Part shown: piece by piece, positions 5,370 to 59,100 of the stretch
How positions within the stretch are numbered: the first letter of the stretch is position 1
Layout of the letters: the number at the start of each line of letters is the position of its first letter
Origin: a virus
Direction: 5' to 3' (one strand)
Virus record (IMG/VR): IMGVR_UViG_3300024265_000030
Location: 62,001 to 126,000 of that record
DNA length: 64,000 bases
The notes under the pieces: generated by a model
Database searches by the model: none
The model's input: only the letters and a program-made list of their open reading frames with translations
Told to the model about the DNA's origin: nothing
Position numbers and translations under genes: made by a program

Positions 5370-5661
5370 AATAAATATTGTTTCTGTAATGTAAGTCTGT
5401 AGCCTGAGTAACAAAACTATAAATGTTTTTTAAAAGGTTAGCATCGTAGTAAGCATCTGGCTCTGGATGAAAACAAAACTGTCTAGAATCAGGGTGTCCA
5501 CACCATCTCACTACACCAATTAAATTCCTTTTAAGGGCTGTCAAGTAGCAACCCCATATAGGTGTTTCTCTATCTGCAGGACTTGAATGCTGCACAAACC
5601 TGATAATTTCATAATCAGTTTTCAAGCCTTCTGGTGGTAACTTTAATTCTTTCAACATCAT
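5368..5661 (-). CDS. hypothetical protein, 97 aa
   Basis: This is the last gene of the leftward block. Its ATGATG start overlaps the stop of the nuclease gene (TAATG) and has GAGAGG upstream, so the pair are coupled. The centre reads HSSPADRETPIWGCYLTALKR and GVVRWCGHPDSRQFCFHPEP, with conserved-looking Trp, Cys and His residues, but I do not recognise the family. It may be a small partner of the upstream PD-(D/E)XK nuclease. Confidence 0.6.
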   Translation of the reverse strand: MMLKELKLPPEGLKTDYEIIRFVQHSSPADRETPIWGCYLTALKRNLIGVVRWCGHPDSRQFCFHPEPDAYYDANLLKNIYSFVTQATDLHYRNNIY

Positions 5662-6428
5662 TAGCGTACCTCTCTTTTTTTAATATCTTCTTTTAATAGT
5701 AATTCAACCTCTTTATCCATATTTTTAACTGGCATAATTATATAAGGTGAATTTTTTGGAAAATGAATTAAGCACCCATCATGTAATTGTATATTGAAGT
5801 TAGATTTCAGTATGTTTTTATAAAACCCTAACTGAAGAGAATATTTATTAAACTCACAGTTATCAAAACCAGACAGTACCCCTAACATACTATCAAAACG
5901 GTTATCTCGTTTGATATTTTTATTTGTTTTCCAATCGACAATAAAATAAATGCCTGTTTCTTTATTTCTACATAAACAATCTATTGTTCCAGCAACGTTA
6001 TACTCTTTATGAGCTACCATAAGTTCAGTCTCTAGGATATCAACCTTATTTTTAAATGGATCCAGGAATTTATGAAATTGACTTATTCTATACCTAATAT
6101 CTGTTACAGGTAGTGTAATCTTACTATATTTCAAAAATAGATTAATATAGTAGTGTAACTCTTTACCTATTACAATTGAATAATCTTTTTTTATAAGCCA
6201 GTTTTCTTTTATTTCGTCTGTGCTTATTCCTTCTTCATCAGCTTTTATCTTAGCCCAGTAATCAGTTTTAAATTCAGGGGTATATTTATTTAGTATATCA
6301 CTAACAGCCTCGTATTGGTTTTCTCGTACATAGTAAGTATGCGTATCTGGAAGAAAATTAATATGTGGGTTTTTAAAATTCAATGTTTCCTTTTCCTTAG
6401 TATCATTGTATAATACAGGCACTTCCAT
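5661..6428 (-). CDS. PD-(D/E)XK nuclease (Cas4/RecB-like), 255 aa
   Basis: The ordered motifs of this fold are present: GKELHYYIN with His92, AGTIDCL with Asp150, IVDWKT with Asp165 and Lys167, and LQLGFYK with Gln199 and Tyr203. Asp, Asp-x-Lys and QxxxY are the metal-binding and DNA-positioning residues of Cas4/RecB-type exonucleases. No cluster of four cysteines typical of the Cas4 iron-sulphur centre is visible. Likely roles are phage recombination or DNA end processing. The region upstream of its start contains a small non-coding stretch with a rightward terminator. Its ribosome site is weak. Confidence 0.8.
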   Translation of the reverse strand: MEVPVLYNDTKEKETLNFKNPHINFLPDTHTYYVRENQYEAVSDILNKYTPEFKTDYWAKIKADEEGISTDEIKENWLIKKDYSIVIGKELHYYINLFLKYSKITLPVTDIRYRISQFHKFLDPFKNKVDILETELMVAHKEYNVAGTIDCLCRNKETGIYFIVDWKTNKNIKRDNRFDSMLGVLSGFDNCEFNKYSLQLGFYKNILKSNFNIQLHDGCLIHFPKNSPYIIMPVKNMDKEVELLLKEDIKKREVR

Positions 6429-37774: not shown

Positions 37775-37812
37775 CTCAAGGCAAGATACTTCTTGCCTTG
37801 AGTTTTATTTTA
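37775..37812 (+). terminator. strong intrinsic terminator after the tail-tube gene
   Basis: CTCAAGGCAAG (37775-37785) and CTTGCCTTGAG (37792-37802) form a perfect 11-bp stem with a 6-base loop, followed by TTTTATTTTA. The downstream chaperone and tape-measure genes would be reached by partial read-through, fitting the low amounts needed. Confidence 0.85.
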
Positions 37813-37824
37813 AAGGAGAAATCC

Positions 37825-38115: not shown

Positions 38116-38132
38116 TTAAAAAGGAGAAGGCT

Positions 38133-38906: not shown

Positions 38907-39943
38907 GTGTAGTCCTTAACGACGAAGAGGTAAGACTATATTTTTCAGAGATAGCTACTGGGACAAGGACTATTACTGTTAAGAACAGTAAAGGCAAGGA
39001 ACTACTAGGAATATTAAGACAACCTACCGCTCTAGAGTATAGAGTAGGGGCGGAAATATATAAAGATACTTTTGAAGATAGTATCGTTAACAATATAAGA
39101 ACCAGAAAACAATTAGAGACTGATTTTATTAAACAGTATAACTTTTTAACTGAAGCAGAACTGTCTAAGCTCTCTAGGTTAGAATCAGAATTAAAGGTAC
39201 TAAGAAAGCAATTAATAAGACTTTCTGGTGAGCCGATTTTAGTCAGGCAGAGAAGAGAAGACCTAGATAAGAAAGAAATAGAGTACTACACTTTATTTTC
39301 AAAAAGAGCTAAGTACTACACAGAAACAGCAGAGTATCAGGCTGAGTCTACAGAGATGTTTCACTATGCTAAATTTTGTATATCTTTGTGGAAGACTACA
39401 GAAAGTTTTCTGGTCGAAAGAGATGATGTATTACGAAGACAAGCTATCCAACAACTTACTTCTTTTGTTCGCGGTTTTGATCAAGGAACCCTCAGGGCTT
39501 TAGCACGAAATCCTATTATTAGAACTCGGTGGAGAGCATCGAAAAAGACCGGTAATCCATTTTTTGGGATACCTATGCAAGGAGGAAATCAGTTTTTAGG
39601 TAGTCCTTCTGCATATTGGACACCAGATCAGATTGGTATGAGTTCCTGGCTTATGTACTATGATGATGTTACTGAAGCTTTTGAGGCTCCGGAATGGTTA
39701 TTAAAAGACGATGAAAAGCTTGACCGCTGGGTTGAGAAGAAAATGGAGGCCAAGGAGCGAGAAAGGATTAAAAAACTGGGTGTAGGGTCTGACAGAGATG
39801 CTTATGATCACGAAGAGGTTATTGTTTTTGGTGATGATAAGGATTTACTATTTGGCGAGGGTTCTCCTTATACGCCTAAATGGGATAAAGGAAAATCTGG
39901 AGATAATATTTCAGACCAGAAATCTATTTTAGGGAACAACTAA
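38903..39943 (+). CDS. tail assembly chaperone-like protein 2, 346 aa
   Basis: The start overlaps the previous stop (ATGA). Residues about 30-60 (GKELLGILRQPTALEYRVGAEIYKDTFEDSI) align with the RRPTGEEVQASDWEYARIFNEAI segment of chaperone 1, and both then have a coiled coil and a helical domain with Tyr/Ala-rich turns. A frameshifted fusion with gene 1 is not possible: the codon before this ATG is TAA in this frame. The C-terminal third (residues about 215-346) is unique. It is probably a second chaperone for the giant tape measure. Confidence 0.55.
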   Translation: MSVVLNDEEVRLYFSEIATGTRTITVKNSKGKELLGILRQPTALEYRVGAEIYKDTFEDSIVNNIRTRKQLETDFIKQYNFLTEAELSKLSRLESELKVLRKQLIRLSGEPILVRQRREDLDKKEIEYYTLFSKRAKYYTETAEYQAESTEMFHYAKFCISLWKTTESFLVERDDVLRRQAIQQLTSFVRGFDQGTLRALARNPIIRTRWRASKKTGNPFFGIPMQGGNQFLGSPSAYWTPDQIGMSSWLMYYDDVTEAFEAPEWLLKDDEKLDRWVEKKMEAKERERIKKLGVGSDRDAYDHEEVIVFGDDKDLLFGEGSPYTPKWDKGKSGDNISDQKSILGNN

Positions 39944-42900
39944 ATGCCTGAAGAATTAATACGTATTGATTTAACCGAGATGTCTGAGCTTAGGGACCTA
40001 GTTCAATCTTTACGTGGTATAAAAGATGTCTTTTTAACTTTCTCAAAAGCCGTGAGTACTCCGTCCGGAGGTAAAGCTACAGTAGGGGAAATATCAATTA
40101 AAAACCTCATTAAAAAGTTTGACCAAGAGTTTAGTGCTTTCACTAAAAAGTTTGGAGAAGGTGCTAAGGAGTTTAAGGTTAAAGGTATTGATGAGGCTCG
40201 CCGTAAAATTCAAGGTTTTTCCGGATCTATCGGTAAAATGGTCCAGGCCGTAGGAGAAATAGATAAATCTATAAAATCTATAACAGCAGCAAGTCTTAAA
40301 CTTAAAAAATCACCGGAACTTAAAAAAGCTAGAGATACCCTCGAAAAAGAATTAAATAATATTTTTACAAAGTATATGTCTTTAAATGTTGATGATGTTA
40401 TTAGAACAGCTGAAAAAACAGGGAAAAAATTAAATGATTATTTTAAAACTATAAATGATAGATTGGCTGAAACTGGTAAGGGGATAGAAAAACAGATTCA
40501 AGATTTACCAAAACCTAAAGCTAAGGTTACTAAAGGTAGTCAGGGAGTTGTAGGAAAGGCTAAAGAAGGTATTAAGAAAATAGAAGAAAAAGAACAGACT
40601 TATATTTCAGAGCTGGACGAAAGAGTAACAGGTACCCTAGATGTTTTACATAAGAGATCTATAGATCAAATAGATGCTTTGATTAAAGAAGTAAGAGGCA
40701 CTACTCCTGCGGGGGCTACTGCGAGATTTGCTGAGGCAGGGAGAACGGGTGTTTTAAAAACAATCAGCGCTATTAAGAAAGGTATTCAGATATCTCAGAA
40801 AGGGTTAACTAAGTTAGTAGATAAGGCTCTAAATTTACAGAAATTAAATGAAGTGATAGGTAGGAGTACAAAACAAGTTCAAAGACTTGAAAACGAGATT
40901 AAAAATATAGAGAGAACTATACAACCTGAGGAAGCTGAGGGTATTATAGCAAGACGGGAACGATGGATAACAGCATTAAATAACCAGATTAAAAAGTTTA
41001 CGGAAGCACGCACTACAGTCTGGAATGAAATAAGTAAGAAGTTGTCAAGTGCTGCTATAGGCGATGTCAAAGAATTTGCAAAACTGTTAGAGACAATAAA
41101 TGATATACGTTTCTACAGTAGACTTACACGTAGATTAGAAAGAAGGGGGATTTCTCCAGAATCTTTAAATCGTGTTAGAACAACATTCGGGGCATTTGAG
41201 TTTGAGGGGAAATTTTATGAGAATATTAATTTAATAACAAAGGGTCTTATTGCTACTGCTAAGACCAGTGTAGAAGAAGTAGGTTTTGCTATCAGTGAGC
41301 AGATAGGCCAGTATGGAAAAACTGTAACAAAATTACGTTTGGGCTTTACGAGAGGAAGAGCCCCTAGAGAAATGTTTAAAGTTACAGAAGCTATTTCTGG
41401 TATTACACGAGGTTTAGGCGGATTACCTGGTGCTAAGTTTGGTAAGGTATCGGCAGGGGCAAAAGAGGATGTTGTTGGAAAATTATTAAACAGTATAGCT
41501 ATGCAGGTAGCTCAACGAGCAAAGTCTGAGGTTAGTGTAAGCGGAATGGCAGTGAGCGGTTTAGATGTAGAGAAAGCGGCTGATGAAATAGCTACAGCTA
41601 TTATTACTCCTTTTTCAGGTTATTTGTTAGCTAAAAGGCCGGAGATAGGAAAAGCGGTTATACCCTCAGGAAGACCAGATTTAATGAAGCTAGATGATCT
41701 TGCCAGGTATATGGTTAGAGAAGCAATGCCTACGGCTATGAGAAAGAAGTTTCAGGTTACCATAAGTAAATTTTTTGAGCAAGCAGGTGATATAGGTAGA
41801 ATAAAAACTGAATTTATGAGGGTTATGGGTATGGTAGGACCTGCTGAAACAGCAGGTGCAAGTTATGAAGGTTATATACGGGAGATGGAAGCACAGGCTA
41901 AACTATTTATCGATCAACAAGAGTATACACGAGAGTTTGCGCCGACTATACAAGCAGCTATAGATGCTTATATATCCGGAGGAAGTCAGGTATTTGAAAG
42001 AGTTGTAAATTTATTAAAGATACGAACACAGAAGTTTTTAGTTGAAATAATAAAGCTTATTCAGAATAGGGTTCAGTTACCTATTGCTGAAGCTATGGCT
42101 AAGTATAGAAAAGAAGTACAGCAGAGATTTGTTGAGATGCTGGTAGCGGGATTTAGGAAAGAACAGGGAAAAGTACAAAAGTTAGCATCCGGTAGGGCGA
42201 TGCAGTCTGGACTAATAAGCGGCGCATCGGCTACTGAAGAACAGTGGACAGCACCTTCTGCATTTTCGATTACAACTCCAGGACAGACACCAAAGATAGA
42301 AAGAGAGCTTAGGAGTATGATATTCAACCTGATGTCTTATTCCCTTAGGGGTAAGTCGCTAAAGGGCACTAGGTTTATCTCTGATTTTGTTCCAAAGATT
42401 TTAAAAGAAACGGAAGCTGCAGAAGTAGGTATGCCTGGTAAGCAATTAATAACAACACAGGCCCTAATAGAGAGAATAAAGACATCAAAAGGGGAGGATG
42501 CAGAACAAGCAAAAAGACTTATTGAACAGGTTACGGTGTTACCGGAAGAGGAGTTTAAAAGATTTAAATTTATAGCAGAGACCCTTAAGTTATACATTAC
42601 AAAAAAAGGTGAGTTTACTAAAAGAGGGCAGGAGATGATGAAGCGTGTTATGGGAAATGCTAGAAGACTAACCAGAGGTGGCGGTATTTCTACACAATAT
42701 CAATCTTTCTTGAAAGTGATGTTTGAGGAGGTTTTAAATATAGAGCGAGAAAGTGTTTTTGCTCAGATGATAGATCCTGCACAGATGGAGGCATTTTTAT
42801 CTCATGAAAAGGTAGCGTCTCAAAAATTAGTAGCTAATATAGTTAGTAGGATAGAAAGGTTTCCGAAGGGTAAAATGAAAACAGGCCTTTTGACTTATGC

Positions 42901-44173
42901 TGATATGAAAGAGAGACAGAGAAAAATTGCGGAAGAAAAGTTAAAGCGGGTAGGTGATATTATAAAGAAATATACGGCTATTGGATTTTCACCAACTCTC
43001 ATTAGGAGACTAATTGCTACGACTGAAAAAGAACAGGAAGTTTTTGATAGAGAAGTTGTGGCGTTAGAGAATGTAATTAAAAGAGGCGGTGCTGTAGCGT
43101 ATGAGTATTTTCCTACGCAGCAGATTGTAGAAAAACATAGGCAGGAAGCATTAGCTATCAGGGGGCTTGAAGAGGCTGAGAATGTAAGTAATAAAAGACT
43201 ACAGAGAGCTTTTCAGAAAATCAGTAAAGTATTTCAGGAAGGTGCAGGTTTTAAAGAGATAAGACAAATGATATCAGATGTTTATAAAAGAGGAGATAGA
43301 GAAACTGTATCTCGCTACGATAAGGCTATAACCGCACTATCCTCTATACATAAAGAAAACATACAGAATGTTGGTAAAATACTTATTCCTGCAATAGTGC
43401 AGTTTTTTGTAGGCGATATGGAGAACTTGGAGCAAGTATTAAGAACATTAGCTTTAATATCGGGAGGAGCTGCTACCGCAGAAAGGTACGGGAATATAAG
43501 GTCTTTAGTTGGTGAATTTTTAGGAATTTCACGAAAAGAGTACGGGCGTTTAGATAAATCTTTAAAATCAGGGAATAAGCAGGCAGTAAAGGCAGTTCGG
43601 GATAGATTAGTGACTTTATTTACTCCGAAGATAATGGATCTTGGAAAAAGTTTGGAGGATTTTTATATACAGATGAGTGCAGACTTAGCTAATCTTGTTA
43701 CTACAAACTTAGTTAGTTGGTTTACTGCTCAGAAAGAAGGGTTGGGTAAAACATTCGGTGCAATAGCGATGCGTGTAAGACAGCTAGGCAGGATGCGTGT
43801 TAAAGGTGAAACTATAGGTATGATAGAGCCGTCAGGATTCTTACCAGGAACTACCGGAGAAATACCTATTGAAACTATAAGACAAGAACAAAGATTATTA
43901 GGAGCAAGAGGAAGAAAACCGACAGGGGAGGTACCTGTTTCTTATGCACCGGCGGTTAAAGGGCTAGATGATATTCTTAGGGAGTTAACTGAAGAATTTA
44001 AACTAACTAAAGAGGCTGTGTCAGTACTTCGTGCCTTTATGGAAACTAAATTTTCAGGAAGAGAGGTTGTGGCTATACGTGGTAGAGCAGGAGTAACTAC
44101 TCCAGGAAGAGGCGGGCCTTCAGCTTTTGGTGCTTTTGCAGGTAAAGATATTGAATATGGTTTTAAAATATAG
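39944..44173 (+). CDS. tape-measure N-terminal part, 1409 aa
   Basis: The product is almost entirely helical, rich in Lys, Ile and Glu (LIKKFDQEFSAFTKKFGEG, ELKKARDTLEKELNNIFTKYMS), with no enzyme motif visible, as expected for a tape-measure protein. It begins directly after the chaperone stop (TAAATG). It ends in TAG, and the next 5019-codon frame is in the same phase 12 bases later, so the two may be one protein of about 6433 residues if the TAG is read through. Alternatively, they are two adjacent rods of a split tape measure. Confidence 0.65.
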   Translation: MPEELIRIDLTEMSELRDLVQSLRGIKDVFLTFSKAVSTPSGGKATVGEISIKNLIKKFDQEFSAFTKKFGEGAKEFKVKGIDEARRKIQGFSGSIGKMVQAVGEIDKSIKSITAASLKLKKSPELKKARDTLEKELNNIFTKYMSLNVDDVIRTAEKTGKKLNDYFKTINDRLAETGKGIEKQIQDLPKPKAKVTKGSQGVVGKAKEGIKKIEEKEQTYISELDERVTGTLDVLHKRSIDQIDALIKEVRGTTPAGATARFAEAGRTGVLKTISAIKKGIQISQKGLTKLVDKALNLQKLNEVIGRSTKQVQRLENEIKNIERTIQPEEAEGIIARRERWITALNNQIKKFTEARTTVWNEISKKLSSAAIGDVKEFAKLLETINDIRFYSRLTRRLERRGISPESLNRVRTTFGAFEFEGKFYENINLITKGLIATAKTSVEEVGFAISEQIGQYGKTVTKLRLGFTRGRAPREMFKVTEAISGITRGLGGLPGAKFGKVSAGAKEDVVGKLLNSIAMQVAQRAKSEVSVSGMAVSGLDVEKAADEIATAIITPFSGYLLAKRPEIGKAVIPSGRPDLMKLDDLARYMVREAMPTAMRKKFQVTISKFFEQAGDIGRIKTEFMRVMGMVGPAETAGASYEGYIREMEAQAKLFIDQQEYTREFAPTIQAAIDAYISGGSQVFERVVNLLKIRTQKFLVEIIKLIQNRVQLPIAEAMAKYRKEVQQRFVEMLVAGFRKEQGKVQKLASGRAMQSGLISGASATEEQWTAPSAFSITTPGQTPKIERELRSMIFNLMSYSLRGKSLKGTRFISDFVPKILKETEAAEVGMPGKQLITTQALIERIKTSKGEDAEQAKRLIEQVTVLPEEEFKRFKFIAETLKLYITKKGEFTKRGQEMMKRVMGNARRLTRGGGISTQYQSFLKVMFEEVLNIERESVFAQMIDPAQMEAFLSHEKVASQKLVANIVSRIERFPKGKMKTGLLTYADMKERQRKIAEEKLKRVGDIIKKYTAIGFSPTLIRRLIATTEKEQEVFDREVVALENVIKRGGAVAYEYFPTQQIVEKHRQEALAIRGLEEAENVSNKRLQRAFQKISKVFQEGAGFKEIRQMISDVYKRGDRETVSRYDKAITALSSIHKENIQNVGKILIPAIVQFFVGDMENLEQVLRTLALISGGAATAERYGNIRSLVGEFLGISRKEYGRLDKSLKSGNKQAVKAVRDRLVTLFTPKIMDLGKSLEDFYIQMSADLANLVTTNLVSWFTAQKEGLGKTFGAIAMRVRQLGRMRVKGETIGMIEPSGFLPGTTGEIPIETIRQEQRLLGARGRKPTGEVPVSYAPAVKGLDDILRELTEEFKLTKEAVSVLRAFMETKFSGREVVAIRGRAGVTTPGRGGPSAFGAFAGKDIEYGFKI
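44171..44173 (+). other. in-frame TAG separating the two tape-measure ORFs
   Basis: The reading is AAA ATA TAG TTA AAA GAT TAC ATG AAA. The downstream frame is in the same phase, and the downstream ATG has only AAAGA as a weak ribosome site. The downstream bases do not match the known CARYYA read-through context. TAG ends several other genes here with overlapping starts, so it is not generally reassigned. Confidence 0.7.
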
Positions 44174-44185
44174 TTAAAAGATTAC

Positions 44186-47100
44186 ATGAAACGGCTAGGC
44201 TATACTGTTGAGGGTAAAGCAGCAACAACTGGAACTAAAATACATGATATCTTAGAAGGTGTTTTTTTAGAGTACTCAAAGCGTATCGGAACTCAGATGG
44301 TAACTGAACAACCAGTAACAACTGTAGGTACTAGAGAAGGCGCTGCTGCTAAAACATCATTATTGGGTTTTGGTAGAATTGATATACTTGGTATATTTAA
44401 AGGTTACGGTGAGATATTTAAGGCATTAGGGGCTATGCCTGCTTTAGTAGATATTAAGACAGTAACTCGTCTTGAGGCTTTTGATGCAGAGGGATTTAAG
44501 ACTCAGATTAGTGCGTATGTAGAAATGTTTAAAGTTTTGGTAAAGATGAATCCTGATAAATATCCTGAACTACAAGATGCTTTAAAACTAATGGGCGGTA
44601 GGGAAGTTACTGCTGTACGAAACTCCATTGTAAATATTCAAAGTATTGTTAAGGATATTACGCAGTTACAAGCTGCGGCTCTTGTTATAGATAGGGAGGC
44701 ATTTGAGGCAGCTATTAAAAAAGCCGGTTTTAAGAGTATTGATCAACTAAGGTTTTTGGTATTAGCCGGTAAAATAACTAACGAGCAGGTGAAACGACTT
44801 ATAACGATTGTTAATCAGGTAGGTAAGGTTGAGGTTTTTGGTTTAAAAGATTTGCCTGATATTGAGAGATTGATGATTCCTGCTTATAGAGCAATAGTGG
44901 CTTTTGAACAAGTTAATAAAGTGTTAGGTAATATTTCCGGAGAAATAACAAAGAGGTTTGTAGAGTATAAGGGTAGACGTGTAGAGCATATAGACGAGGC
45001 TCTTCTTGCTAAAAATTTAAGGGAGCTAGGGTTGCCGTTTATTAAAGATGCGGAAAAGCTAAAAAGGGTCGCAAAAGAACAAAAGGTATCTATGGGAGAA
45101 GTAAAGGATGCTATAAAAAGAGCAACTGTAACGGTAACTAGCCAAGTTCCGGAACGTGAATTTAAGGATTTTTATGCACAGTTAAAAGAGAGGTTACTGA
45201 CACAATTAAAAACTTTAACTGGTTTTTCTAATATAAAACAGTATTTAGGTGAATATATCGGTAGGCAGCAGATAGGTGGTAGGGCAGGTGTTGCTGCATT
45301 GCCAGCACCAGGAAGGGTAGGGGTAGAAAAAGAGAGAGTGCAAGTATCAGCTGAAACAGCAAAAATGACGGGTGAAGAAGCAAAGGCTTACGGAAACATT
45401 ATAGGAAGTGTTGAAACTTTAACCGGTAAGTTAAAAGAAAAGACCGGCGCTCTTGAAGCAGAGATGGCTATTTTAAAGGAAGAAGCTACTATTTTTGTTT
45501 CAATTACACAGACAGCGGAAAGTTTGGTTAAGTACCTGAGAGGTACAGAGAAATTATCTTCTGTAATTAAATCAGCTTCACAGGTTCTTAGCTTGTTTGG
45601 ACTGAGTGAGAAAGAGGTAGGAAAAGTAGTTAAAAACTTAGGAAAAACTGTCGGAAAGATGGAAGAGTTAAAATCAGCAACATCTAAGGTAAAAGATACT
45701 GTGGAAGGTACAGCTCAGGGATTTGATAGAGTAAATAAAAGTGCAACTGATTCGTCCAAAACTATAGATGATATGCTGGGCGGTATGTTTAATTTAGGTA
45801 GCGGGACTGCGAGTGTTGAAGAAAAGATTAAGTCAATGACAAGTGAAGCAGGCAGGTACGCTACTATGATGAACAGTGCTGTTACTTTTTCTAAAAATGA
45901 ATCTGCAAATAGAGAGCAGATTAAAGCTAAGCTTAGTGATGCTTTATCACATATTGAAAAATACGAACAGTTAGCGAATAGGCTTTCAGAACATTCTAAA
46001 AATAATGTAGATGCAGCTAAAGCGGAATTTACAGCACGTCAGAGAATTGCACAGATATACGAGCGTGCTTCTGAGTTTGGATTAAGGACGGAATCTGAAC
46101 TAGCAGAGAAGATAGATCTTAGAAATAAAAAACAACGAGATTTATCAAGACAAGCTAATGAGTACTTTACACAGTTAGGTAGGATCAGAACTGCATCTGC
46201 AGACGCTAACATACCCCTACATGAAAGACTTGAGAGTCTTAGAGAGGCTATACGTGCCTTAAATCAGTATGCAGACGTAGTTAAATCGCTTTCTCAGGTT
46301 GAGGGAGAGGGCTTAGCAACAGCATCTAGACGACAACAGTTTGCAATGCGTAGATCTCAGATAGGGGAAGCTTTAGGGGGATTACAAGCAGAGTTTAAGA
46401 GAGGGGCTGATCCTGCAGGGGAATTAACGAGACATATAGGGAAGCAGATATCGCAGTTTAATGAAGAAATGTTATTATCTGGAAGAGCTTATGCTCAATT
46501 AACTAAAGAATCAGGAGGGGCTATAAGAGAAAACTTAAATGTGATTCGTAAAGTAACTGATCAACAAGGTAAGCAGCTACTTATGGTTGAAGGTATAGCA
46601 ACAGCTCAGGGTAAAGTAACTACACAGGTAAAAGAGACAGCATCTGTGTATGCTGGAACTGTAGCTAATCAGATGAAAAATATTATGGCTAGACTGGCGA
46701 AGTGGGGGAGTGGTGCTTTTTTATATTTTGGTGTTATGCGTGGTGCTAGGGATGCTGTTCGTGCAATAACAGAAATGGAAAGCGCTATTACTTCGTTAAG
46801 GCAAGTTATGAATCAGTCTAATACTGATTTTATGGCTATGTCAGAGCAAGCTTACGCTCTAGCTGTGTCCTACGCAACACCTATTAAAGATTTAATGAAA
46901 ACTATGTTAGAGTTTGCGCGGCAGGGCCTTAACCAGGAAGAGGTAATAGAGGCTTCACGGGTAGCTACTCTAGCAGCTAATGTAACAGTCTTAAATGCAA
47001 CGCTGGCTATGGACACACTTACAGCTGCTACACGTCAGTATAATATATCTGCAATGGATTCTATAAAAGTTCTTGATGCCTGGAATTTAGTAGCTAATAG

Positions 47101-50100
47101 GAATGCTGTTACTGCAAAGGATTTGGGTGGGGCGATGAAACAGGCAGGTAGTATAGCTAAATTAATGGGGCTTGGTTTTGAGGAACTCACAGGTATCATG
47201 GCTGCATTACAGGAGACTACCAGAAGAGGTGGACCTACAATCGGACGTGCAATTAGGTTTATGTTAGTTCATTTAAGAACAGATGAAACAGAGAAAGCTT
47301 TAACTGATTTAGGTATTTCTATAAGAAAGACAGCCGGAGAATATAGAACAGCTTCATCTGTATTTAAGGAAGTAGCTGAGAGGTGGAGAGAATTAACAAG
47401 TGCTCAAAAGTACCAAGTTTCTTATGCTATAGGGCACGTAAGGTTTGGTGCATTTGTAGCTGCAATGTTTGAGAATTGGGCTAAGGTTACTAAAGCTACA
47501 ACAGAAGCTACTTACGCTCATGGATCTGCAATGGCAGAAAATGAAATAGCTATGCAGGCGTTTAAGAAACAAGTAACAGGTTTACGTAATGAATGGGAGG
47601 CTTTTATTTATTCTTTTGGTAGAACAGGTATCTTAGGTATACTACGTGGATTTCTTTCAATAGGTAAGGGTATCTTAGGTGTATTTGATAAACTGCCAGG
47701 GGTTATAAAGACTACAATTTCTGTCTTGGGTACATCTGCTGTTTTATTTATGGGACTTAGTCGATTTTTACGATGGTATTTTAGTATTGATTTATCAGAT
47801 GTTATTCGCAGGTGGGGATTAAGAGCGGCAGGAAAAGAGGCGGCAAAAACTATAGGTTTTTTAAAGAATGTTTCTTCAGTAGCTATTGGTAAAAATATAT
47901 CTGAGACAGAAACACTAGCAATGGCACAAAACACAGTAACAGGATCTGTGCAGGGAACAAATGTTTTATATACTACGAGTCTTGGCCTCCTTAACTCTAT
48001 GACTTTAGCTACAAGGGAGTTAGCGGTTGCTCAGGGTTTAGTTACTGGGGGCACGACAAAAGTAGCTATGCAGACGTTACCCTCTACCCTTGTGATGCAA
48101 AGAGGGAGACTTGCACCTACTTCAGCAAGAACGATAAAGGAGAGCGTAGCAGTAGCGGGTACGGGTGCAGCAGTCAAAAGATCATTATTTCAGAAGAGTA
48201 CTTTTAGAGAAACATTTCGTGCAGCTAGGGTATCCGGGAAAGCTACAGGAAATAGATGGGGTAATGCTTTTATGGCTGCAACCTGGTTAAGGGTTAAGGG
48301 TTTAGGTAAGGGATCTTTTTGGAAGGGTTTAGGTTTAGCTTTAACTAAGGTAGGAGGTACTTTAGCAGGATTTTTAACTAGTCCTCTTGGGATTGTAGCG
48401 GCAGCTATAGCAGGTACTACAGCAGCCCTATGGGGATTTAGGAAAGTAACAGATAACACATCTAAAATTATAATTGAAAAAAACAAAAAGTTAATTAACG
48501 AACTTCAGCAGTCTTTAAATGAGGCTAAAATAGCTATTGTTTCTTATACAACGGCTTTAGAGAATATCGCTACGGGTGCTAGGGTTGATTTAAGTGCTAT
48601 TGAAAGAGAGAAGAAATTAAGATCAGATATAGCTTCCCGGTTTCCTGGGTTAGTGAAAGGTTATACAGATTACGGGGATGCTATTCTTGAGTCTTCAAAC
48701 AGGGTTGGTGTACTTAAAAAAAGAATGGAAGAGTTAGCCACAGTAAAAGCTGTAGAACTAATAGGTATACAGTTAGAGGAAGTTAGTGTTATATTAAGAG
48801 ATCTATCAGACCCGAGAGTAGGCAGAAATATTTTAACTTATTTACCGGCCAGTCTGGGTTTGTTGGATAGTACTATAGACAAACTAAGAAAAAATATTAA
48901 AGAATATAATAATCTACGAGAAGCTTACAATGAGGCATTTAAAAGAGGTTATGATGTTACTACTATTAGAAAAAATATGGGTGAGATTGCTGAGGAGATT
49001 AGAGAGGGAACCAAGGTAGTAAATACTTCTTTTATTCAGGCAGAAAATAGAATGAGAAGTATAGCAAAGATGGGCGGAACTGCTGCAGTTGAGGCAATTG
49101 GGAGGGCATTACAAACAAACTCATCAAATCTGGAAATTTATATAACTAGTATAGTTCAAAGTTTAGGTACGGAAGATGTTTTAAAAGGATTCAGAGCATT
49201 TTTTGTTAAAACATTTGGCCCGGACTTAGGTACGATTATAAAAGATTCTGTTAGGAATATACCTTTACCAGCTTTAAAAGAGTCGGCGGAGGCTATATCA
49301 AAAGCTATTTCCGATTCTTTATTAACAAATATAGACGTTAAGGGGTCTACCCGAAAGGCAGTTAGAAAAATAGTTAAAGATTTAGAAGATGCGATTAGGG
49401 GTGAAGATTATCAGGAAGCTTTGTTATCGGCTATGGAAGGTATATATGAAATCAGGGGAAAACTAAGCGATAATGCGGTACAGAAATTAACTAGTAAGAT
49501 GGGCGAGTTTGCTATAGTTTTCGCAAAAAAGATAGAAGGCGATGCGAAAGAACATAGAAAAATGTTTATTAAGACTACCGAGGGGTATGCTATAATAGAT
49601 GAAGAAGCTATAGCAAACATATTTGGAGGTAAAGATATAGATTTAGAGCTTATTAAAAAGAAAAAAGAATTTATAATGAAATACAAAAAGTCTGGCGATG
49701 TGATTGATATGATTGAAGAAATGCAGCGAGAGAAAGGTAAGTGGGAAGGAGATACATACGTTATTAAAGTAGGTATTAAACCAGATGAAGTATACTTTAA
49801 TAAACTTAAAGTGGCGATGGACGCTGTTAAGGGTTATTCTGCATACCTTAAAGTGATGGATCAGTATTTAACTGGAATTAGTGCAACAGAAAAAAACAGA
49901 GTAAGTATGATGAAGGATGCTTATTCTATAGGTACGAAGTCAGCAAAAGAATACGCTAATATACTTGATGCTTTGGAAATTAAAATCAAAAAGAACTTAA
50001 GTAGGTTTGGTGGTTTAATGGGTGCTGGTCCGGAATTTAAAAGGGAGATGCTTGATATTACAAGATTAAGAGCAGAAGCAGAATTAACTGTTAATAAGTA

Positions 50101-53100
50101 TAATCAGTGGCGTTCCTTAAAGAATAGAATGTTAGCAGATCCTGCAGCATTTCAAAAGGATACACACGCAGTAAGAACCTTTAAGAATTTAATAGGAGAT
50201 ATCCAGGCTAGTTATAAAACATTACCGAGAGAAGCGCAGGAAATGTACAGGGGTGTTTTTAAAGATATAGATAAAGTTTTAATCGATGAAGACCAGGTAG
50301 AGAAGAATAAAGAAAAGATTTTAGGTGCAATTAGGGATATAGCTGATAAGGCTAAATATAAAGGTGTATTAACTTTTGAAACAATTGATACACGTGTTTT
50401 TGATAAAGCCATAGATGAAATATATAAAAAGTTTAGGGACACTTCAGCCCTTACATCAAAAGACGTAGAAAGTATAATAAATAAAATCCCTATAGATACA
50501 GGGGCTGTAATTAATGCTGAAATAGATAATATGAGAAAAAAAATAAATACGATGAAGAAAGAGCAGTTTCCCGGGCTATTCGGTACTATTTCAGAAAGTG
50601 ACATAAATTATTTTAAACAGCTAAATACGCTATATGGAGAATTAGAGAAAAAAAGAAGAACTGCTAAGGTTTTAGGTAAGGCTTTACCATTTATTCCTAA
50701 AAAAACTGATTTAGATGCAGTTAGTAAATCTCTAGATAGTTTAATAAAAGAACATGGAGCAAGACTTGCATCAGGAGTTTCAGTAGATATTAGTAAAAGT
50801 GTTTTACCGCGTTTGAAAAAAGAGTTAGAAGCAGTGCAACTGATGAAAATGGAATTTAAATTAGATGAAGCACAGGCCGCTAAGCAGGCAGTAGGTGCGG
50901 CTGAATTATTTAAATCCGCTTTTACAAGAGAATTACATGAGAGGGTAGGAGAAGAAGCAGGAGGAAAACTTGCTTTAGGTACAGTAAAGGGGCTTCAGCG
51001 TGGTTTAACGGTTTTAGGAGGTACTAATTTTTATAGACTATTAGCAGGTACAATGAAGATAGATAAAGTAGCTAATCAGTTAATAAGATCAGGTCAAAAA
51101 GCATTTGAGAAAGCTAGTAGAGGACGAGGTGGTACTGATACGATGACTGCTATACTAGGTTTAACTCAACAGAATATAGGCGAAGCATTAAGGACAGCTA
51201 ATTTAGGAGGAGTAGCTATAAACGCAGCTAGTCAGATATGGGATGAATATTTAAGCAGGGCCAGGGACGGAAGTACAGAGAGTATTGCAGTTTTTACAGA
51301 AACAATAAAAGCTTTTTCTAAGGCCGCAGGGAATACAACGGGAGAAATGTTAGACAACATAACAAAACAAATGGAAGAGGGCATGAGGCCTGATGTAGCT
51401 TTTATGGATATGGTTAAAAGCCTTGGTTTAGCCCCTGAGGATTTAAGACTTATACAACAACAATCAACAAAAATGCTTTCGACTATTACAGCTATACAGA
51501 AGGGTATGGGAGATGCAGCGAGTGACTACTCTAAGTCTTTAACAGAGTCAGGTAAAAAGTCTAGACTGGAAATAGTTAGTTTGTTAAGTGAGTCTTTAAA
51601 TATAGCTAAATATTATGAAAAAAGAAGAGACGAGGCTATAAAGGACATGAAGGAGTATGTAACTACTCTAGTAAGCTATAGTAAAGAATTGACTTCTGGA
51701 GTAGGTGTGTCTTTTGCTGAATTTTCAGAAAAGATGGGTGGGCATCTTGGTGGTATACGTAAGATGTTAAATATATTTTCAAAATCTACTGAAGCAGAAG
51801 TAAGAGGGTGGGCTAAAGCTTTAAAGGAGATTTTAGGTAGAAAGTTTGTAGAGGCTTTTACAGGTTTTAATATCCAGGCGATAAAGCAGTCTATTAATGC
51901 AATAAGGGATGCCTTAGCTACTGAAGAATTTGAAGAAACCGGTTACGCTGGCATGACAGCATTGGCGAGTCAAATAAAGAAATTAGGTATAGCTTTAGCT
52001 AAAACAGCAATAAAGTTCCCAGAAGTTAAAACGTGGGGTAAAATGGTTAAGGAGGCTTTTGATAAAAAGACAGTGGCTGAAGCGGAAGCAATGGGAAAAG
52101 CATTAATAAAGTTAGGAAATGAAACAGATGAGTTACGTAAGAGGCGGGATTATTTAAAAAAAGGACCACCTGCAGGGGCAAAGGTTATATTTTTTGATCC
52201 TGCTAGTGTTAACGAATTAGATGAACAAATAAAACAGAATGAGATACGCTACACTAGGTTAAAAACTCAACTAGTAGCAGGATCTACAGCAATGAAAAGT
52301 TATTTTGAGGATACGTCGAAAGAATTTAATGAGTTATTTAGGGTACTTGGTTATACAGATAAACAGATTAAAGTATCTGATAAAAATTTACAGGCTTTAG
52401 GCTTAACAGGTATACGGGCAGCTTATGCTGTTATTCAGCAGCAGATTAGTTGGATTAAAATGAATAAGTCTTTATCTGATTTTGTAACAGTTGCTGACCT
52501 GTACACAGATATAGGTTTGGTAAATAGAATAGGTGAATTGACTCCTGTTATTTCTGCTACAGAAGAAGTGCTTACCGCATTAAAAAAGGAGTATATAAGT
52601 AACACTGAAAAGTTAAGGGAATACACGGAACAAACAGAAGATTTTATTAAAGTGCAAGAGAGACAAAAAATAATAGTGGAAACGGTAAAAGATGTAGAGA
52701 ACTGGAGGGAAAGATTAGTAGGGTTTGAAAGTATGAGATCTTCGTATTCAGATTTAAATAAAAGTTTAAATTTATTAGATGCTCAAACAAAGGTATATCA
52801 GTCTAGTTTAGATTCTGTAAGTAAAACTGCTGATTATTTTAAAACAACAATTGATAAACTGATTGAATCTTCATTACGTTCCGGAGAGTGGGGTTGGGAT
52901 AAAGTTCCGCCACTTATAAAAAGCTCTATAAGTCAGCTAGAGTCTTACTACTCAGAACTGTTAGCTTTACAGAGACAGCAGGATGTTATTTATAACCAGG
53001 TAGATAGACTAGGCGATGCATGGGTGGATGCGCTACATGCCCCTGATGAAGAACAAACACTTTTGAAGTCTATAACAGATAGTTTTAAACAATTAAGAAG

Positions 53101-56100
53101 AGATGCATCAAGAAATTTTATACAGCCTGTTCTTGATGACTGGAAGAACTTATTTGCTGGAACTGTACCTATCAAAGATATACAAGTAGATGCAAGTGCG
53201 GAAATAAAGTTTATAGTAGCAGAGATTAAAAGATTAGAAGAAAATATTAGAAGCGAGAAAGGTGTATTCGAGGAAGTTTTTTTAGGTGATCTAAAAAAGG
53301 CATTAGGTATTTTAAATGAGAACGACACTATACAAGCACTTAATAGCATGAGTAAGGTTATTAACAATATATTACTGGGTAAGGGGGGTGTGGTAAGTGC
53401 ACCTGTACCCCTTAAAAAGGCAAGTGGGGTTGTACTAACTGCTGCTCAGGGAGTAGTGGATGGAAGGTCTGGAGGTCAGTTAGGTCACGCTGTAGCTAAG
53501 GAAGGTAGTGTTTTAGCTGAACTTCATCCAGGAGAAATAGTTGTACCAGCTCGGTTAGCAGGAGGGGTACCCTCTTACATAACTAATCAATTACCTGTTT
53601 ATGATGGATTTTCTTCAGGGATACGTATGGCTGAGGGTGGTGTATTAACCGAAGAAGAAAATCTTAAAAAAGCAAAACAGGTTGCTGATAGTTTATTTAA
53701 TAAAGGTCTTTTTCTGGAAGCTGTATCTGCGTATAGAGGTATACTAAAGGTAAGGCCTAATGATCGGGATGTTAATTTAAACCTTAATAGATTACTAAGT
53801 CAAAATGCCTTTAGTGATCCTTCTATAAAATTAGAAAGAGAAAAAGATATAGCTAAACACCCCGAGATAGAAGAAAAAATAAAGGAGGCTAATCTTCTCT
53901 ACAGATCACAGGAGTATAAGAAGGCGCTTGATATTTTTACAGGCATAAGGTTTAAATACAAAGATATTGAACAAGATAGTAAGTGGCTTACGTATGGTTT
54001 TATAGAGAGGATAAAGACATTTATTGAATATAATAAACCCGGGGATGTAGCAGGTCTGATTAAGGAAAAGCCGGAATTAGGTAAGGCTCTTGATCCGCGG
54101 GATATGAATTTAGAGGATGTAGAGTTGTTGGCACGAAGTTCTTCAAGTAAAAAAGAATTGAAATCTATACTGAGTGAGATACCCCTGGATAACCATAATG
54201 TTCGTTTAGGTATGGAATCTTTGATAAAGGAGAAATCTTATTTTTATAAATTATTTGAAAGGCTAAAAAAATGGGGTGCAGTTAGGTCTGAAGTAAGTTT
54301 CGCAAAAGAAATGATGAAGTCACTTAATAAAGAAGCTGTAGTTGATTACTTAGGGATAGAAAAATTTAAGAGATATTTTCCTAAGATACCAATTACTAGT
54401 AAACAATTTGCTTCAGGTATTAGAATGGTTGAAGGTGGACAGTTACCCTTACCCAGAGCAGCAGTAAGAGGAAGATTTACACAGGAGGAAAAAGAGAAAC
54501 AAGCTGAGAATCGTTGGAAAGTAATGGCAAAGATAGCTTCTGCAGCTTGGAAGTTGGGCGGAAAAGGTGTTACAGGGTTTATGGGTTTAATAAGTTCTGC
54601 TCTTAAGAAAGAGATAACTCTTCCTGAAATGAATAATCAGTTAACTAAAGATCAGTTAGAGATGAGGGACGCGATAATGCGTGGTTTCGGAGGTAAGTAT
54701 AAAACAGCAGATACGAAAACTGACCTTAATTTTTGGAAAGATGTATATAGGGGTTTAGGGATTATGGGTAAAGGTCTTTCTACGGGATGGAAGGGATTTA
54801 TTAAATTTATAAAAGATCATATGAGTTTAAAAGAAATATATTTAGGTGCTAGGGCACAGCAAGGGCAACCAACTGCACTTGATATAGCTGCTGGTCGTGC
54901 TTCTGGTTTACGTTTATCTGAAGGTGGACAGTTAGGCCATGCTGTTGCCGCTGCGGGTGAAGTAGCTGCAACATTACATCCAGGTGAGATAGTTGTACCG
55001 GCTCATCTTGCAGGGGGAGTGCCGTATAATATTGTAAATAAGTTACCGGTTTATGACGGGTTTTCTTCCGGTGTACGTATGCAGGGCGGAGGTAGTATAG
55101 GGGGGGTTACTGAAGTTAAAAGTGAATTAGATAAATCTTTTGCTAAGTTAGTGATAGGTTTTAAAGCAGCTGCATTGAACATGGAAGTATCAGATAAGGT
55201 TTTTAGACAGAATTTGGAAGCTCAACGGAGTACTAACAGGAGCATGGAAGATGTAGGCAGGAACATGGAGGTAGTAAGTAAGGGTTATAAAAAAAGAGCT
55301 GCTGTTTCTGCTTCTCCTGAGGATAGTAGGAGTAGTGCTATACGCATAGATACAGACAGTATGGTTTCTAAAGGCAGTGTAGGTGGAGGAGGAGCTTCTC
55401 TAGAGATAGGTATGGTTAAAGCTACAGATGTTATAAAAGGATTTAATACTATTCTAAGTAAACAGGAAGACAAAGTTAAGGAGTTAACAGACGCTTATAC
55501 AAAACTTAAACAAGAAACAGGCGATCTTAAAACAGCTTCTAAAGAGGCGAAGGAGGCATTAGCAAAAGCTGATTGGGAGAAAGCTATTAATCAAGTTGGA
55601 TTAGGTTTATTGCATGCGACTGAATTTGTTGCTAAGAAGGCTGAGCCTGTGCTTGTGGGTGGTTTTCAGGCAATAGTAGCCGGTATGAGCGGAAGTGCTG
55701 AAGTGTTAGCTATGGCTAGAGAAAAGTTAGGGGTAGAAATGGGTAAGCGTGAAAAGCAAGTTAGAGAAGAATTAGCAGGGAAAGCTGTAAAGAAAGAGGA
55801 AAAGAAACAAGTAACAAGAAGAGCTACTGAAATAACAGAAACAATAGGTATTCAAAAAGCCTCCGGAATAAAAATGCATTTAGGAAAGGCAGAAGGGGAG
55901 CGAAAAGACATAAGCCTATCAGCAGAAGACATGGTAAAGACAGTAATGCTAAGTACAGAGGACTATGCAAATGCCTTGTCTAATTTAAGAGACCCCGACA
56001 CTGTAGATGCCCTGAATGCTTTACAAATTCAAATGATAGGGGTTAGCGATAAAGCTTACAAAACAGCAGAGGCTGAACTTGTGAATGCTAAGGCTAAAAA

Positions 56101-59100
56101 AGAAGCTGAAACAGCGACTCAGAAAGCTAGTGAAAAACAGTTAGAAGCTGCGAAAAAAAGTGATGCTTTTGGAAAAGCTATGGGAACGGTTATTGCAACG
56201 CTGGAGGTTGGTATAGGTCAGCAAATGATGAAGGATTTTAAAACATTAGCAGAAGATATAAGTTTAACAATCGGCGGAATAACACTTCAAGGGACAGGTA
56301 AGACAACAGGTACCCGAATGAAAGAAGCCGGATTAGAAGACTTTCAGATGAAGACTGCTGCAGATAGGCCAGAAGTGCAAGAATCTGTTTCTGGAGGAGG
56401 TGCGGTTGGTGCGGTTGTAGGTAAGCAGCTAGGTACTACTGCGGGTGCAGCTCTAGGGGCTGCATTAGGTGGTCCTGCAGGAGCTAAGATAGGTGCTGCA
56501 ATTGGTGATGTAGCTGGTGATATACTAGGATCTGTAGTAGGTTCTTGGTTAGGGGAATTATTTGCTCCAAAGGAAACAGAAGAAGAAAAACAGAAAAGGG
56601 AAATTGAGTCAGCTATTAACTCTGCTAAGTTATTTGGTTCTGCTTTAGATAGTTTAAGCTCGGTAACAGCTTTAGCTACGGAGAGTATGAGTGTAGTTTT
56701 TGACGATATGAAAGGTAAAATTGGGGAAGCTATAACTTCCTTTGGTAGAGGACTTGAAGATGGAAAATTACTTATTAGTACTTTTGGAAAGGAGTACATA
56801 AAAACGACAGATAATGTTAAAGATGCGGCTGGTAATATAACTCAGTTTGGTACTGTCGATATAGACTATGATAAAATAAAATCTGATTATGAGGATTTGA
56901 GTGTACAGATAAATGAAGCATCTTCTGCGGCACAGTTTAGTGCTGAGGGATTTAAGAAGGCAGCGGCTACAGGAGGAGAAGCTTCTTTTGTAAGTGAGGA
57001 AGGAGAGGAGACAGGACTTTACGATTTATTGATCGATATAACAGATCAGATGAGTGAGTCTTTTGATTTACTGGATTCACAGGCAATAAAGACATCAGCT
57101 ACTTTAAACCTATTTGGCGGTGTTATGACTGCAGCGGGTGGTAATGTAAAAGAAGCCGGACGTGCGATGATGGGTATGGTTGTTGAAGGCTACAAGGTAG
57201 TAGAAGTTTTTAAAGATATGGGTGAAGGTGGTGGTAAGAAGTTAAACTTTGATGCGCTGTTAGGACCTACAATGGCTGAGATAGGTGCTATGATGGCTGA
57301 TTCCGAACTTATAGGGGCTCAAAGAGATGCCTCTAATGCAATGCGAGATTTATATACAGAACAGGCTGGTGTTGAGGCTAAACAGGATGTTAAAGAGGAT
57401 AAAAGTTTTTTATTTTGGAAATGGAAGGGTAAAGAAGATGATCCTATTAAGGTTGCTGAAAGAAATAAGGCTATATTGGACGCTCAAAAGAATGCTGCGG
57501 CTTCTGCATCAGAGGCAGCGGCTTTAGATAAAAAGATAGCAGACCTTAAGAAGGAAGTTGAAAAAAAGACACAAGAAGCAATTTCTAAGATGGACGAATA
57601 CGCTAAGACTATTAATGATTTAATGACTACTGGTGTTGCTTCTAGAGAGGCGTGGGGTATGGTAGGTAGTATGTTTCAGAGTATGGGAGGTCTTGCTAGT
57701 GAGTTTGATATGTTGGCTGATGCTTTTGGTCAGGCAGGTCAAGATATTGGAGGTCTTTTTTCCGGGGTTGGTGTTGCAGGCGGTTTATCTCTATTACCTG
57801 AGGGTGATGTTAATCGTGCATCTAAGATATTAACAAGTTCAACACAGGAAGGTTTAAATCAGTATAATAAAATAATAAAAGGTCAGGCTGATAATTTTGC
57901 GAAATCAAGCGATAAGCTAGTTTCTTCTACCGGAGATATGTTAGCTTTATCTGCTGAGCAGGTTTCTACGTTGTTAGGTGTATCTCAAGAAGTTGCTCAG
58001 CAGTTGGCCGGTATGAGTTTACGAGAAATATATCAGGAATATAGAAACTTCTTACAAGGTGAAGCTCAGAAGAGTGTAGAGTTGCAAAGAAAAGAATTAG
58101 ATATGCTTGCCAATGTAACTGTTACTGGCTTTGATTCTATCATGTTTACTCATCAGGATTATTTGCAGGCAATGAGTGATACTTTATCACAGTGGGCGGC
58201 AGATAATGATTTAATAAAACAGGGAATAGGAGAAGCTATAGATAAGTTTAGTACAACAGCAGAGTATATAGCTAAAGATGTATTTGCTACATCTATATCT
58301 GGACTAGGAAGTGATCTTGCTGGGATTTTTGATGTTTTTGGTAACGCACCAAAAGAAAGTTTGCAGTTATTTACTGAAACAGGCCGAGGTCAGTTAGAAG
58401 TTTCAGGTGCAGCAAAAGAGTTTTACGGAGAACAGCTAAAACTTATGTCTGATCAGATTCAAGCAATAAAAGATATGCAGTTAGCTAATGTAGCAGGTAT
58501 GCACTCTTTAGCTTCAGAGGTAGGAACTGCAGTCGTAGGGCAGGGTCCTGCAGTTGCTGCTGCAATGGGAAGACTAACATCTGCAACTACTTTTGGTAGT
58601 GCTACTTACGGAGAAGCATTGATTGCTGAGGATTTGGCTATTTTGGAGGAGGCAATTCAAAGTGGTAATTTATCTCAGGATGAGCAATTACGTTTACAAG
58701 GACGTTTGTTTTCCCTTAATTCAGATATAGCTAAAACAAACCTTGATATATCTCAAAAAGAATCGGAGTTGATTAATTTAGGTCAAGAGTCAAATGACTT
58801 ATTGAATAGACAGATAGATGCTTATCAAAAAGAGTTTGGGAAACCAGGGTTAGAAAAGGAATTTATTCAACGTAACATGGAGTTTCTACGTAATATGCAG
58901 CAGTCTATTAACAGGGCAACTGGAGGAGTATTTACTACAGAGACTGGTGATATTTCACGAATATCAGAAGCTGAATGGGTGGCATTACAGGGAGTAGGTG
59001 AAGGTCAGTTTCAAATAGCTCAGACATTAGAAGAGTTTGAGAAGTTATATGGTCAGAAGATTGATCGAGGACCTAAAGAGGTTGCTACTTATGCTACTGT

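What the first reader, a model, noticed from the sequence alone, without database searches (positions are those of the whole stretch)
44186..44560. PD-(D/E)XK nuclease at the start of the giant tape-measure ORF
His20, Asp66, Asp89-x-Lys91 and Gln108-x-x-x-Tyr112 form a complete Cas4/RecB-type active site. A DNA nuclease in a tape-measure protein, which is ejected ahead of or with the phage DNA, could attack the host chromosome, trim the phage end or fight host defence. I know of no described nuclease of this class fused to a tape measure.
Basis: partly seen in the sequence, partly recalled or inferred. Interest (0 to 1): 0.8.

Follow-up and report, generated by a model that had tools for sequence, protein, structure and literature searches.

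The report
Nuclease domain inside phage tape-measure protein
A phage's giant tail-ruler protein, which is probably shot into the host along with the viral DNA, carries what looks like a complete DNA-cutting enzyme site; I found no description of this combination in a phage, but neither the fold nor any activity is proven.

Summary
PHROG 298 ('exonuclease') matches at E=1e-5. The core pattern with exact spacing has 26 other matches in 2.9 million viral contigs; 19 of the 23 scanned are PD-(D/E)XK exonucleases by Pfam.

Two corrections. The domain is not at a protein start: a near-identical sister contig has no stop where the window has TAG, so the protein has about 6,433 residues (39944-59245), with the motifs at 1434-1525 in an N-terminal extension of about 2,200 residues; 79 other tape-measure ORFs have at most 852 before the core. 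And it is not Cas4: the protein has no cysteine.

Against: no nuclease match in Pfam, NCBIfam, PADLOC or PDB sequences; both AlphaFold2 models failed (mean pLDDT 43-44); home-made HMMER profiles miss it; no diverged homologue, so conservation is untested. Closest precedent: Tme, a tape-measure-related contractile-injection effector with an unrelated endonuclease. Verdict: probable co-injected nuclease, new variant of a known kind; substrate unknown.

The parts
39944..59245 (+). tape-measure protein gene, about 6,433 codons plus stop; one open frame in the sister contig as far as that contig reaches; in the window split by one TAG
   Evidence: PF10145 E=1.2e-27; PHROG tape-measure families
39944..44173 (+). 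upstream ORF (1,409 aa) = N-terminal part of the same protein; no recognised domain (only sub-threshold matches to coiled-coil-type Pfam families)
   Evidence: no tblastn match at E<=0.1 in 50,697 phage records
44164..44174 (+). locally divergent stretch holding the in-frame TAG (44171-44173); an intact allele exists in the sister contig
44186..44660 (+). putative RecB-type PD-(D/E)XK nuclease domain (approximate limits, my estimate; P0001 residues about 1415-1572)
   Evidence: PHROG 298 E=1.5e-5 / 1e-5; motif pattern; hhalign decoy tests
44231..44245 (+). motif I, G-T-K-I-H (His20 = residue 1434)
   Evidence: PHROG 298 positions 103-118, E=0.515 in the sister contig
44372..44383 (+). motif II, G-R-I-D (Asp66 = residue 1480)
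   Evidence: G and D invariant in alignments A3 and A8
44450..44458 (+). motif III, D-I-K (Asp89, Lys91 = residues 1503, 1505)
44504..44518 (+). motif IV, Q-I-S-A-Y (Gln107, Tyr111 = residues 1521, 1525)
46625..47944 (+). conserved tape-measure core (PhageMin_Tail and flanks), starting at residue 2228
5661..6428 (-). separate stand-alone PHROG 298 exonuclease of the same phage (255 aa)

Best explanation
The window belongs to a long-tailed phage, probably of the siphovirus type (inferred). Its tape-measure protein has a long N-terminal extension (about 2,200 residues before the tape-measure core), and a RecB-type PD-(D/E)XK nuclease domain is embedded in it at about residues 1415-1570. Shown: the motif set and its spacing, the profile match, one continuous frame in a sister contig, the tape-measure core about 650 residues further on. 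Inferred: the domain folds as PD-(D/E)XK and cuts DNA with metal held by D1480 and D1503; it lies in the head-proximal part of the tail tube, is ejected with the tape measure just ahead of the genome, refolds in the cell, and resects free DNA ends at the entry site. Nucleases of this class usually act on ends or on single strands (recalled), and the first ends it would meet are the phage's own leading end and broken host DNA. I put host or competitor DNA and the phage's own end at about equal odds.
For: PHROG 298 E=1.5e-5 and 1e-5 on the D-DxK-QxxxY segment, with a weak in-frame match of the His motif at the right profile position (E=0.515). The same profile segment finds ORFs of AddA/AddB size (about 1,100-1,300 aa; the naming is my inference) in a search where 224 of 299 genomes of one phylum matched. 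Exact motif spacing: 27 stretches in viral contigs; of 23 others scanned, 19 match PF12705, though several of the 19 are close relatives of each other. The five windows that hold DxK and QxxxY rank 1-5 of 503 and 1-5 of 363 (combined profile). The sister contig reads through. In phage 80alpha the tape-measure N-termini lie against the tail completion protein that meets the DNA end (PMC11661146, passages). Tme shows that a tape-measure relative can carry a working endonuclease (PMC11126660, passages).
Against: No nuclease family in Pfam at E<=1 (the only Pfam matches over the domain are sub-threshold ones to FAD_binding_5, E=0.015, and TssC, E=0.06), none in NCBIfam or PADLOC, none among PDB sequences (best is an aspartate racemase, E=0.046), none to PF12705 at E<=10 or PHROG 69 at E<=1. 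In the whole-record search the PHROG 298 match is only 20.2 bits, below the 24-48 bits of the rows listed. HMMER profiles built here do not find it (one search aligns only the His motif, E=0.68); hhalign with the 19-member profile alone ranks it 9th of 363, and even the best hhalign probability is 14%. AlphaFold2 mean pLDDT 42.8 and 43.6, Foldseek nothing relevant. The His-to-GxID distance is 43 residues against 78-124 in 18 comparison nucleases. No diverged homologue of the domain was found. A nuclease riding ahead of the genome could endanger the phage's own DNA, and a folded domain in three or more copies may not fit in the tube (inference).
Confidence: 0.55

Rival explanations
1. The domain descends from a RecB-type nuclease but now serves as a structural or DNA-binding module of the tape measure (for example gripping the DNA end), without cutting.
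For: Tape-measure proteins are under structural constraint (general knowledge); the segment between His and Asp is short; the family-level signal is weak.
Against: The residues H, D, D, K, Q, Y are all kept, which a dead domain would be expected to lose.
Confidence: 0.18
2. There is no nuclease: a mixed alpha/beta stretch of a 6,433-residue protein resembles the motif by chance.
For: Only one library profile supports it; a loose form of the motif appears in 24 of 500 shuffles and in 3 of 79 other tape-measure ORFs; 4 of 23 pattern matches scanned are not PF12705 proteins; AlphaFold2 gave no confident fold.
Against: Strict motif in 0 of 500 shuffles and 0 of 79 ORFs; PHROG 298 E=1e-5; top-ranked windows in two of three decoy tests.
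Confidence: 0.2
3. The TAG at 44171 is a true gene boundary: a separate 1,409-aa protein, then a tape measure that starts at ATG 44186 with the nuclease at its N-terminus. (This concerns the gene, not the domain, so it does not exclude the other readings.)
For: TAG is used as a stop elsewhere in the window (it ends 7 of the 48 genes that I took as real, one of them the split gene itself); no tRNA was found that could read it.
Against: Same frame on both sides, no ribosome-binding site before ATG 44186, sister contig without the stop.
Confidence: 0.1
4. The nuclease is a relic of a homing element (intron- or intein-borne) that landed in the tape-measure gene.
For: Tape-measure genes are frequently interrupted by homing endonuclease genes (PMC10448857, passages).
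Against: The frame is continuous in the sister contig and the window has no extra sequence relative to it; the motif set is that of RecB-type exonucleases, not of a usual homing class (recalled); no intein family in Pfam.
Confidence: 0.03

Closest known systems
Tme, tape-measure-related endonuclease effector of the Streptomyces davawensis contractile injection system (PMC11126660, passages read)
   Same: Large protein with remote tape-measure homology and a DNA-cutting domain, loaded in a tail-like injection system
   Different: EndA-type nuclease (DRGH and H-N-N motifs) at the C-terminus and a DUF4157 domain, in a bacterial system; here a PD-(D/E)XK motif set in an N-terminal extension of a phage tape measure
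PHROG 298 exonucleases (including the phage's own stand-alone copy at 5661-6428 and AddA/AddB-sized proteins)
   Same: H, GxxD, DxK, QxxxY in order; profile match at E=1e-5
   Different: Those are separate or helicase-sized enzymes; the stand-alone copy and the embedded domain show no significant BLAST similarity to each other (E=0.46)
PF12705 PDDEXK_1 / Cas4-like phage exonucleases
   Same: Identical core motif spacing in 19 of the 23 scanned matches to the pattern
   Different: The tape-measure domain does not match PF12705 and has no cysteine for an Fe-S cluster
Tape-measure protein of mycobacteriophage TM4 with a peptidoglycan-hydrolase motif (PMC1796659; title and start of abstract seen in the listing)
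   Same: An enzyme motif inside a tape measure
   Different: Acts on the cell wall, not on DNA
Staphylococcal nuclease domain in the hub protein of the phage-like element BtI1 (PMC2147016, passages read)
   Same: A nuclease domain fused to a tail structural protein
   Different: Hub protein and another nuclease fold
Polyvalent proteins of phages and conjugative elements (PMC5512222, abstract start and passages)
   Same: Large protein thought to be delivered with the DNA
   Different: 2 to 15 domains each; here one enzymatic domain is recognised, inside a tape measure

Membership tests
PD-(D/E)XK superfamily, RecB-type with QxxxY | D then (D/E)-x-K | tested here: met
   Asp66 and Asp89-x-Lys91; invariant in alignments A3 and A8
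PD-(D/E)XK superfamily, RecB-type with QxxxY | upstream GxxxH and downstream QxxxY | tested here: met
   G-T-K-I-H and Q107-I-S-A-Y111. Upstream GxxxH is seen in 18 of 19 comparison nucleases (the other is cut off) and also in 1 of 4 non-nucleases
PD-(D/E)XK superfamily, RecB-type with QxxxY | alpha-beta core fold | tested here: inconclusive
   AlphaFold2 mean pLDDT 42.8 (one sequence) and 43.6 (six sequences); Foldseek best E 3.7, nothing relevant
PD-(D/E)XK superfamily, RecB-type with QxxxY | match to a family profile | tested here: met
   PHROG 298 E=1e-5, 26 bits; but none in Pfam, NCBIfam or PADLOC
PF12705 PDDEXK_1 | score above the family cut-off | tested here: not met
   no match at E<=10
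Cas4 / AddB with Fe-S cluster | four cysteines | tested here: not met
   no cysteine in P0001
Tail tape-measure protein | tape-measure core domain | tested here: met
   PF10145 E=1.2e-27; PHROG 4211 E=8.6e-81
Tail tape-measure protein | very long gene in the tail cluster, behind tail-tube and chaperone-like genes | tested here: inconclusive
   longest ORF of the window, behind 36063-39943; the supposed tube and chaperone genes had no informative profile match
Tme-type tape-measure-related effectors | DUF4157 and C-terminal EndA-type nuclease | tested here: not met
   no such Pfam match at E<=1 in the pieces covering 39944-59245
Polyvalent protein | several different effector domains in one polypeptide | tested here: not met
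   only the nuclease-like domain recognised (Pfam on the whole protein; PHROGs on 39944-53001 only)

The most novel reading that the evidence does not exclude
A phage carries an active PD-(D/E)XK nuclease inside its tape-measure protein, injects it ahead of its genome through the tail tube, and uses it on DNA at the moment of entry: the first phage tail ruler that is also a DNA-cutting weapon or end-processing enzyme.
Probability: 0.35. Interest if true: 0.8.

Novelty: new variant of a known kind. Interest (0 to 1): 0.52.

Why it matters
If true, a tape measure would do more than set tail length and help DNA cross the membrane: it would deliver a nuclease before any phage gene is expressed. 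That raises a directly testable question (what does it cut, and why not its own genome) and would tie phage tape measures to the nuclease-bearing effector of a contractile injection system, for which a tape-measure origin has been proposed (PMC11126660, passages). It also bears on defences such as SNIPE, which cleaves phage DNA during injection and associates with the lambda tape measure (PMC13190303, abstract read).

Tried and rejected
Single-sequence AlphaFold2 of 337 residues and AlphaFold2 with six aligned sequences both failed; Foldseek on the second model gave nothing relevant. Search for diverged homologues: exact-peptide scans of viral contigs with the domain, the terminase, the tape-measure core, the stand-alone exonuclease and the capsid protein returned only the sister contig, except one 15.8-kb contig (L151) with a 75% identical capsid protein; it ends 375 codons into its tape measure and shows only weak similarity there (blastp E=2.8e-8 with SEG and composition correction off; phmmer E=1). 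These scans need an exact 8-residue word, so moderately diverged relatives can be missed. The domain had no confirmed relative in genome contigs and no tblastn match at E<=1 in phage records. Stop-codon recoding was set aside: TAG is a stop elsewhere and no tRNA was found in the record, searched in pieces (a gene across a piece boundary could be missed). Paralogy with the stand-alone exonuclease at 5661-6428: no significant BLAST similarity (E=0.46). A beta-propensity profile did not clearly single out the domain (the H, D and K labels printed there are one residue off, corrected). Home-made HMMER profiles missed the domain.

Rows dropped before counts: of 27 stretches one is the sister contig (L156); two with stops in the core (L163, L166) and L177 (same core as L161) were left out, so 23 others were scanned. 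Several of the 19 nucleases are close relatives of each other, so they are not 19 independent cases. That L152, L159, L161 and L174 are the four non-nucleases was judged by eye from their cores; the tool gave counts, not names. The 80 loci include the sister contig; the 79 others were used for the motif counts, but only 23 records were given to the PHROG search. In one search, 43 sequences made the profile; 36 of these, chosen by the motif, made the core profile. One search lists only part of its matches. In one search two of the 13 tape measures (L014, L021) align only from a later point of the core, and the L014 gene is split in its record.

Full report
What was checked. The window is bases 62001-126000 of a 180,316-base virus record. 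H20, D66, D89 and K91 are correctly placed; the Gln and Tyr are residues 107 and 111, one less than stated. The protein is a tape measure: PF10145 matches at E=1.2e-27, 13 PHROG tape-measure families match (best E=8.6e-81), and 171 phage records have a tblastn match to the core region at E<=1e-5.

The gene boundary. The stop TAG at 44171 lies in the same frame as the upstream 1,409-aa ORF, and ATG 44186 follows 12 bases later without a ribosome-binding site. A second contig, IMGVR_UViG_3300009788_000095, differs from the window at 13 of 16,576 compared bases, but 8 of the 13 fall within 44164-44174, and there the frame has no stop from the start at 39944 to the end of that piece at window position 52761. 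A longer overlapping piece of the same contig reads as one open frame from that start to the contig's end, 5,507 residues. So an intact allele exists; the window's TAG is either a sequence or assembly error or a true variant. The natural protein would then have about 6,433 residues (the last part read from the window only), and the putative nuclease is internal. Recoding of TAG is unlikely: it ends 7 of the 48 genes that I took as real in the window, the split gene among them, and no tRNA was found in the window or in the rest of the record taken in pieces.

The architecture is unusual in itself. The tape-measure core starts at residue 2228 here. In the 13 phage tape measures fetched, the BLAST alignment to it begins at residue 2-659 of the open frame (two of them align only from later in the core). 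In the 79 other ORFs from viral contigs at most 852 residues lie before it (any frames cut by a contig end are included). Residues 1-1409 have no tblastn match at E<=0.1 in 50,697 phage records.

Is it a nuclease? For: (1) PHROG 298 (exonuclease) at E=1.5e-5 in the window and 1e-5 in the sister contig. Searching the whole record with that profile finds two places: this one (E=2.2e-5, 20.2 bits) and a stand-alone gene at 5661-6428 (E=3.2e-29). In the sister contig the His-motif stretch also matches at the proper profile position, weakly (E=0.515). (2) The same profile segment picks up many ORFs of about 1,100-1,300 aa, the size of AddA/AddB (my inference), in a search where 224 of 299 genomes had a match; the listed rows score 24-48 bits, more than the tape measure's 20.2, and none lies in an ORF above 1,743 aa. 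Stand-alone exonuclease-like ORFs of two phages score 19.1 and 18.1 bits in the same kind of search. (3) A DNA pattern that encodes only GxID, DxK and QxxxY with the exact spacing found here has 27 matches in viral contigs. One is the sister contig. Of 23 others scanned, 19 match PF12705 and 19 match PHROG 69 exonuclease at E<=0.001, so the spacing predicts this enzyme class well, although several of the 19 are close relatives of each other. Upstream GxxxH is present in 18 of the 19 nucleases (the other is cut off), in 1 of the 4 non-nucleases, and in the tape measure. (4) hhalign against a 36-member profile built without the tape measure: the five windows that hold DxK and QxxxY rank 1-5 of 503, the others being windows of this and other tape measures and shuffles; the margin is small, 22.4 against 20.4 for the best other, a shuffle. 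Against a 55-member profile they rank 1-5 of 363: four score 26.0-26.4 and one 22.1, against 20.3 for the best other; the hhalign probability is still only 14%.

Against: no nuclease family in Pfam at E<=1 (sub-threshold FAD_binding_5 E=0.015 and TssC E=0.06 are the only Pfam matches over the domain), NCBIfam or PADLOC, and no nuclease among PDB sequences. No match to PF12705 at E<=10 or to PHROG 69 at E<=1. HMMER profiles built here do not find the domain, or only its His motif at E=0.68, and hhalign with the 19-member profile alone ranks it 9th of 363. Two AlphaFold2 runs gave mean pLDDT 42.8 and 43.6. The second shows helices and short strands around the motifs in the expected order, but at that confidence this is not evidence, and Foldseek found nothing relevant. 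The His-to-GxID distance is 43 residues against 78-124 in the comparison set. There is no diverged homologue, so conservation of the residues is untested.

Is it elsewhere? PHROG 298 was not found inside a tape-measure ORF in 13 phage records or in 23 records of viral contigs; its matches there lie in ORFs of 245-371 aa. The nearest relative, L151, has ten proteins 41-75% identical to those of the window but ends 375 codons into its tape measure.

How it would work. In phage 80alpha three tape-measure N-termini are modelled against the tail completion protein, which meets the DNA end, and the C-termini sit at the baseplate (PMC11661146, passages). If that orientation holds here, the domain lies in the head-proximal quarter of the protein and would leave late, shortly before the DNA. 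RecB-type nucleases usually act on DNA ends or single strands (recalled). I therefore think the most likely mechanism is resection of DNA ends at the entry site, on host or competitor DNA or on the phage's own leading end. I cannot choose between these from sequence. Every step after the motif and the reading frame is inference. A folded domain in three copies inside a tube is a difficulty; it may travel unfolded.

Comparison with the literature. Eight searches of the held library showed, in the listed titles and abstract starts and the passages I read, no phage tape measure with a PD-(D/E)XK domain; several of these searches matched more papers than were listed, and most subscription papers are not held. 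The closest case is Tme (PMC11126660, passages): tape-measure-related, with an EndA-type C-terminal endonuclease, in a contractile injection system. A related tape-measure-like effector, Sle1, is described in a paper whose text does not contain the word nuclease (PMC13277306, passages). BtI1 has a staphylococcal nuclease domain in a tail hub protein (PMC2147016, passages). Tape-measure genes are often interrupted by homing endonuclease genes (PMC10448857, passages), but nothing is inserted here relative to the sister contig.

Verdict. A probable (not proven) RecB-type nuclease domain embedded in the N-terminal extension of a phage tape measure: a new variant of a known kind. Not Cas4, and not at the start of the protein.

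Noticed in passing
window 21354-22783 +: An IscB-like protein (PF14239 RRXRR E=2.5e-60, HNH E=3.5e-8; the name IscB is my reading) with a HEARO RNA at 21354-21582 (RF02033, 116.7 bits), inside a phage genome, two genes before the terminase gene.
   Followed up: partly
window 20079-21092 +: Volactin family (actin-like) protein (PF25216, E=4.6e-70), shortly before the IscB-like gene.
   Followed up: no
window 5661-6428 -: A second, stand-alone PHROG 298 exonuclease (E=3.2e-29) in the same phage, with no significant BLAST similarity to the tape-measure domain.
   Followed up: partly
window 8911-9837 -: ParB_N protein (PF02195, E=5e-10) near the exonuclease gene.
   Followed up: no
window 44164-44174: The two near-identical contigs differ at 8 positions within 11 bases here, against 5 in the other 16.6 kb compared; the register agrees on both sides, which looks like two compensating small indels.
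   Followed up: partly
window 53000-59245 + (C-terminal part of P0001): Repeated segments of the type GQLGHAVA..GE...LHPGEIVVPA.LAGGVP in the C-terminal part of the tape measure.
   Followed up: no
L151 (IMGVR_UViG_3300030616_000109): A relative with capsid 75% and tail-tube-like protein 69% identical whose tape-measure N-terminus is nearly unrecognisable: the tape measure seems to diverge far faster than its neighbours.
   Followed up: partly
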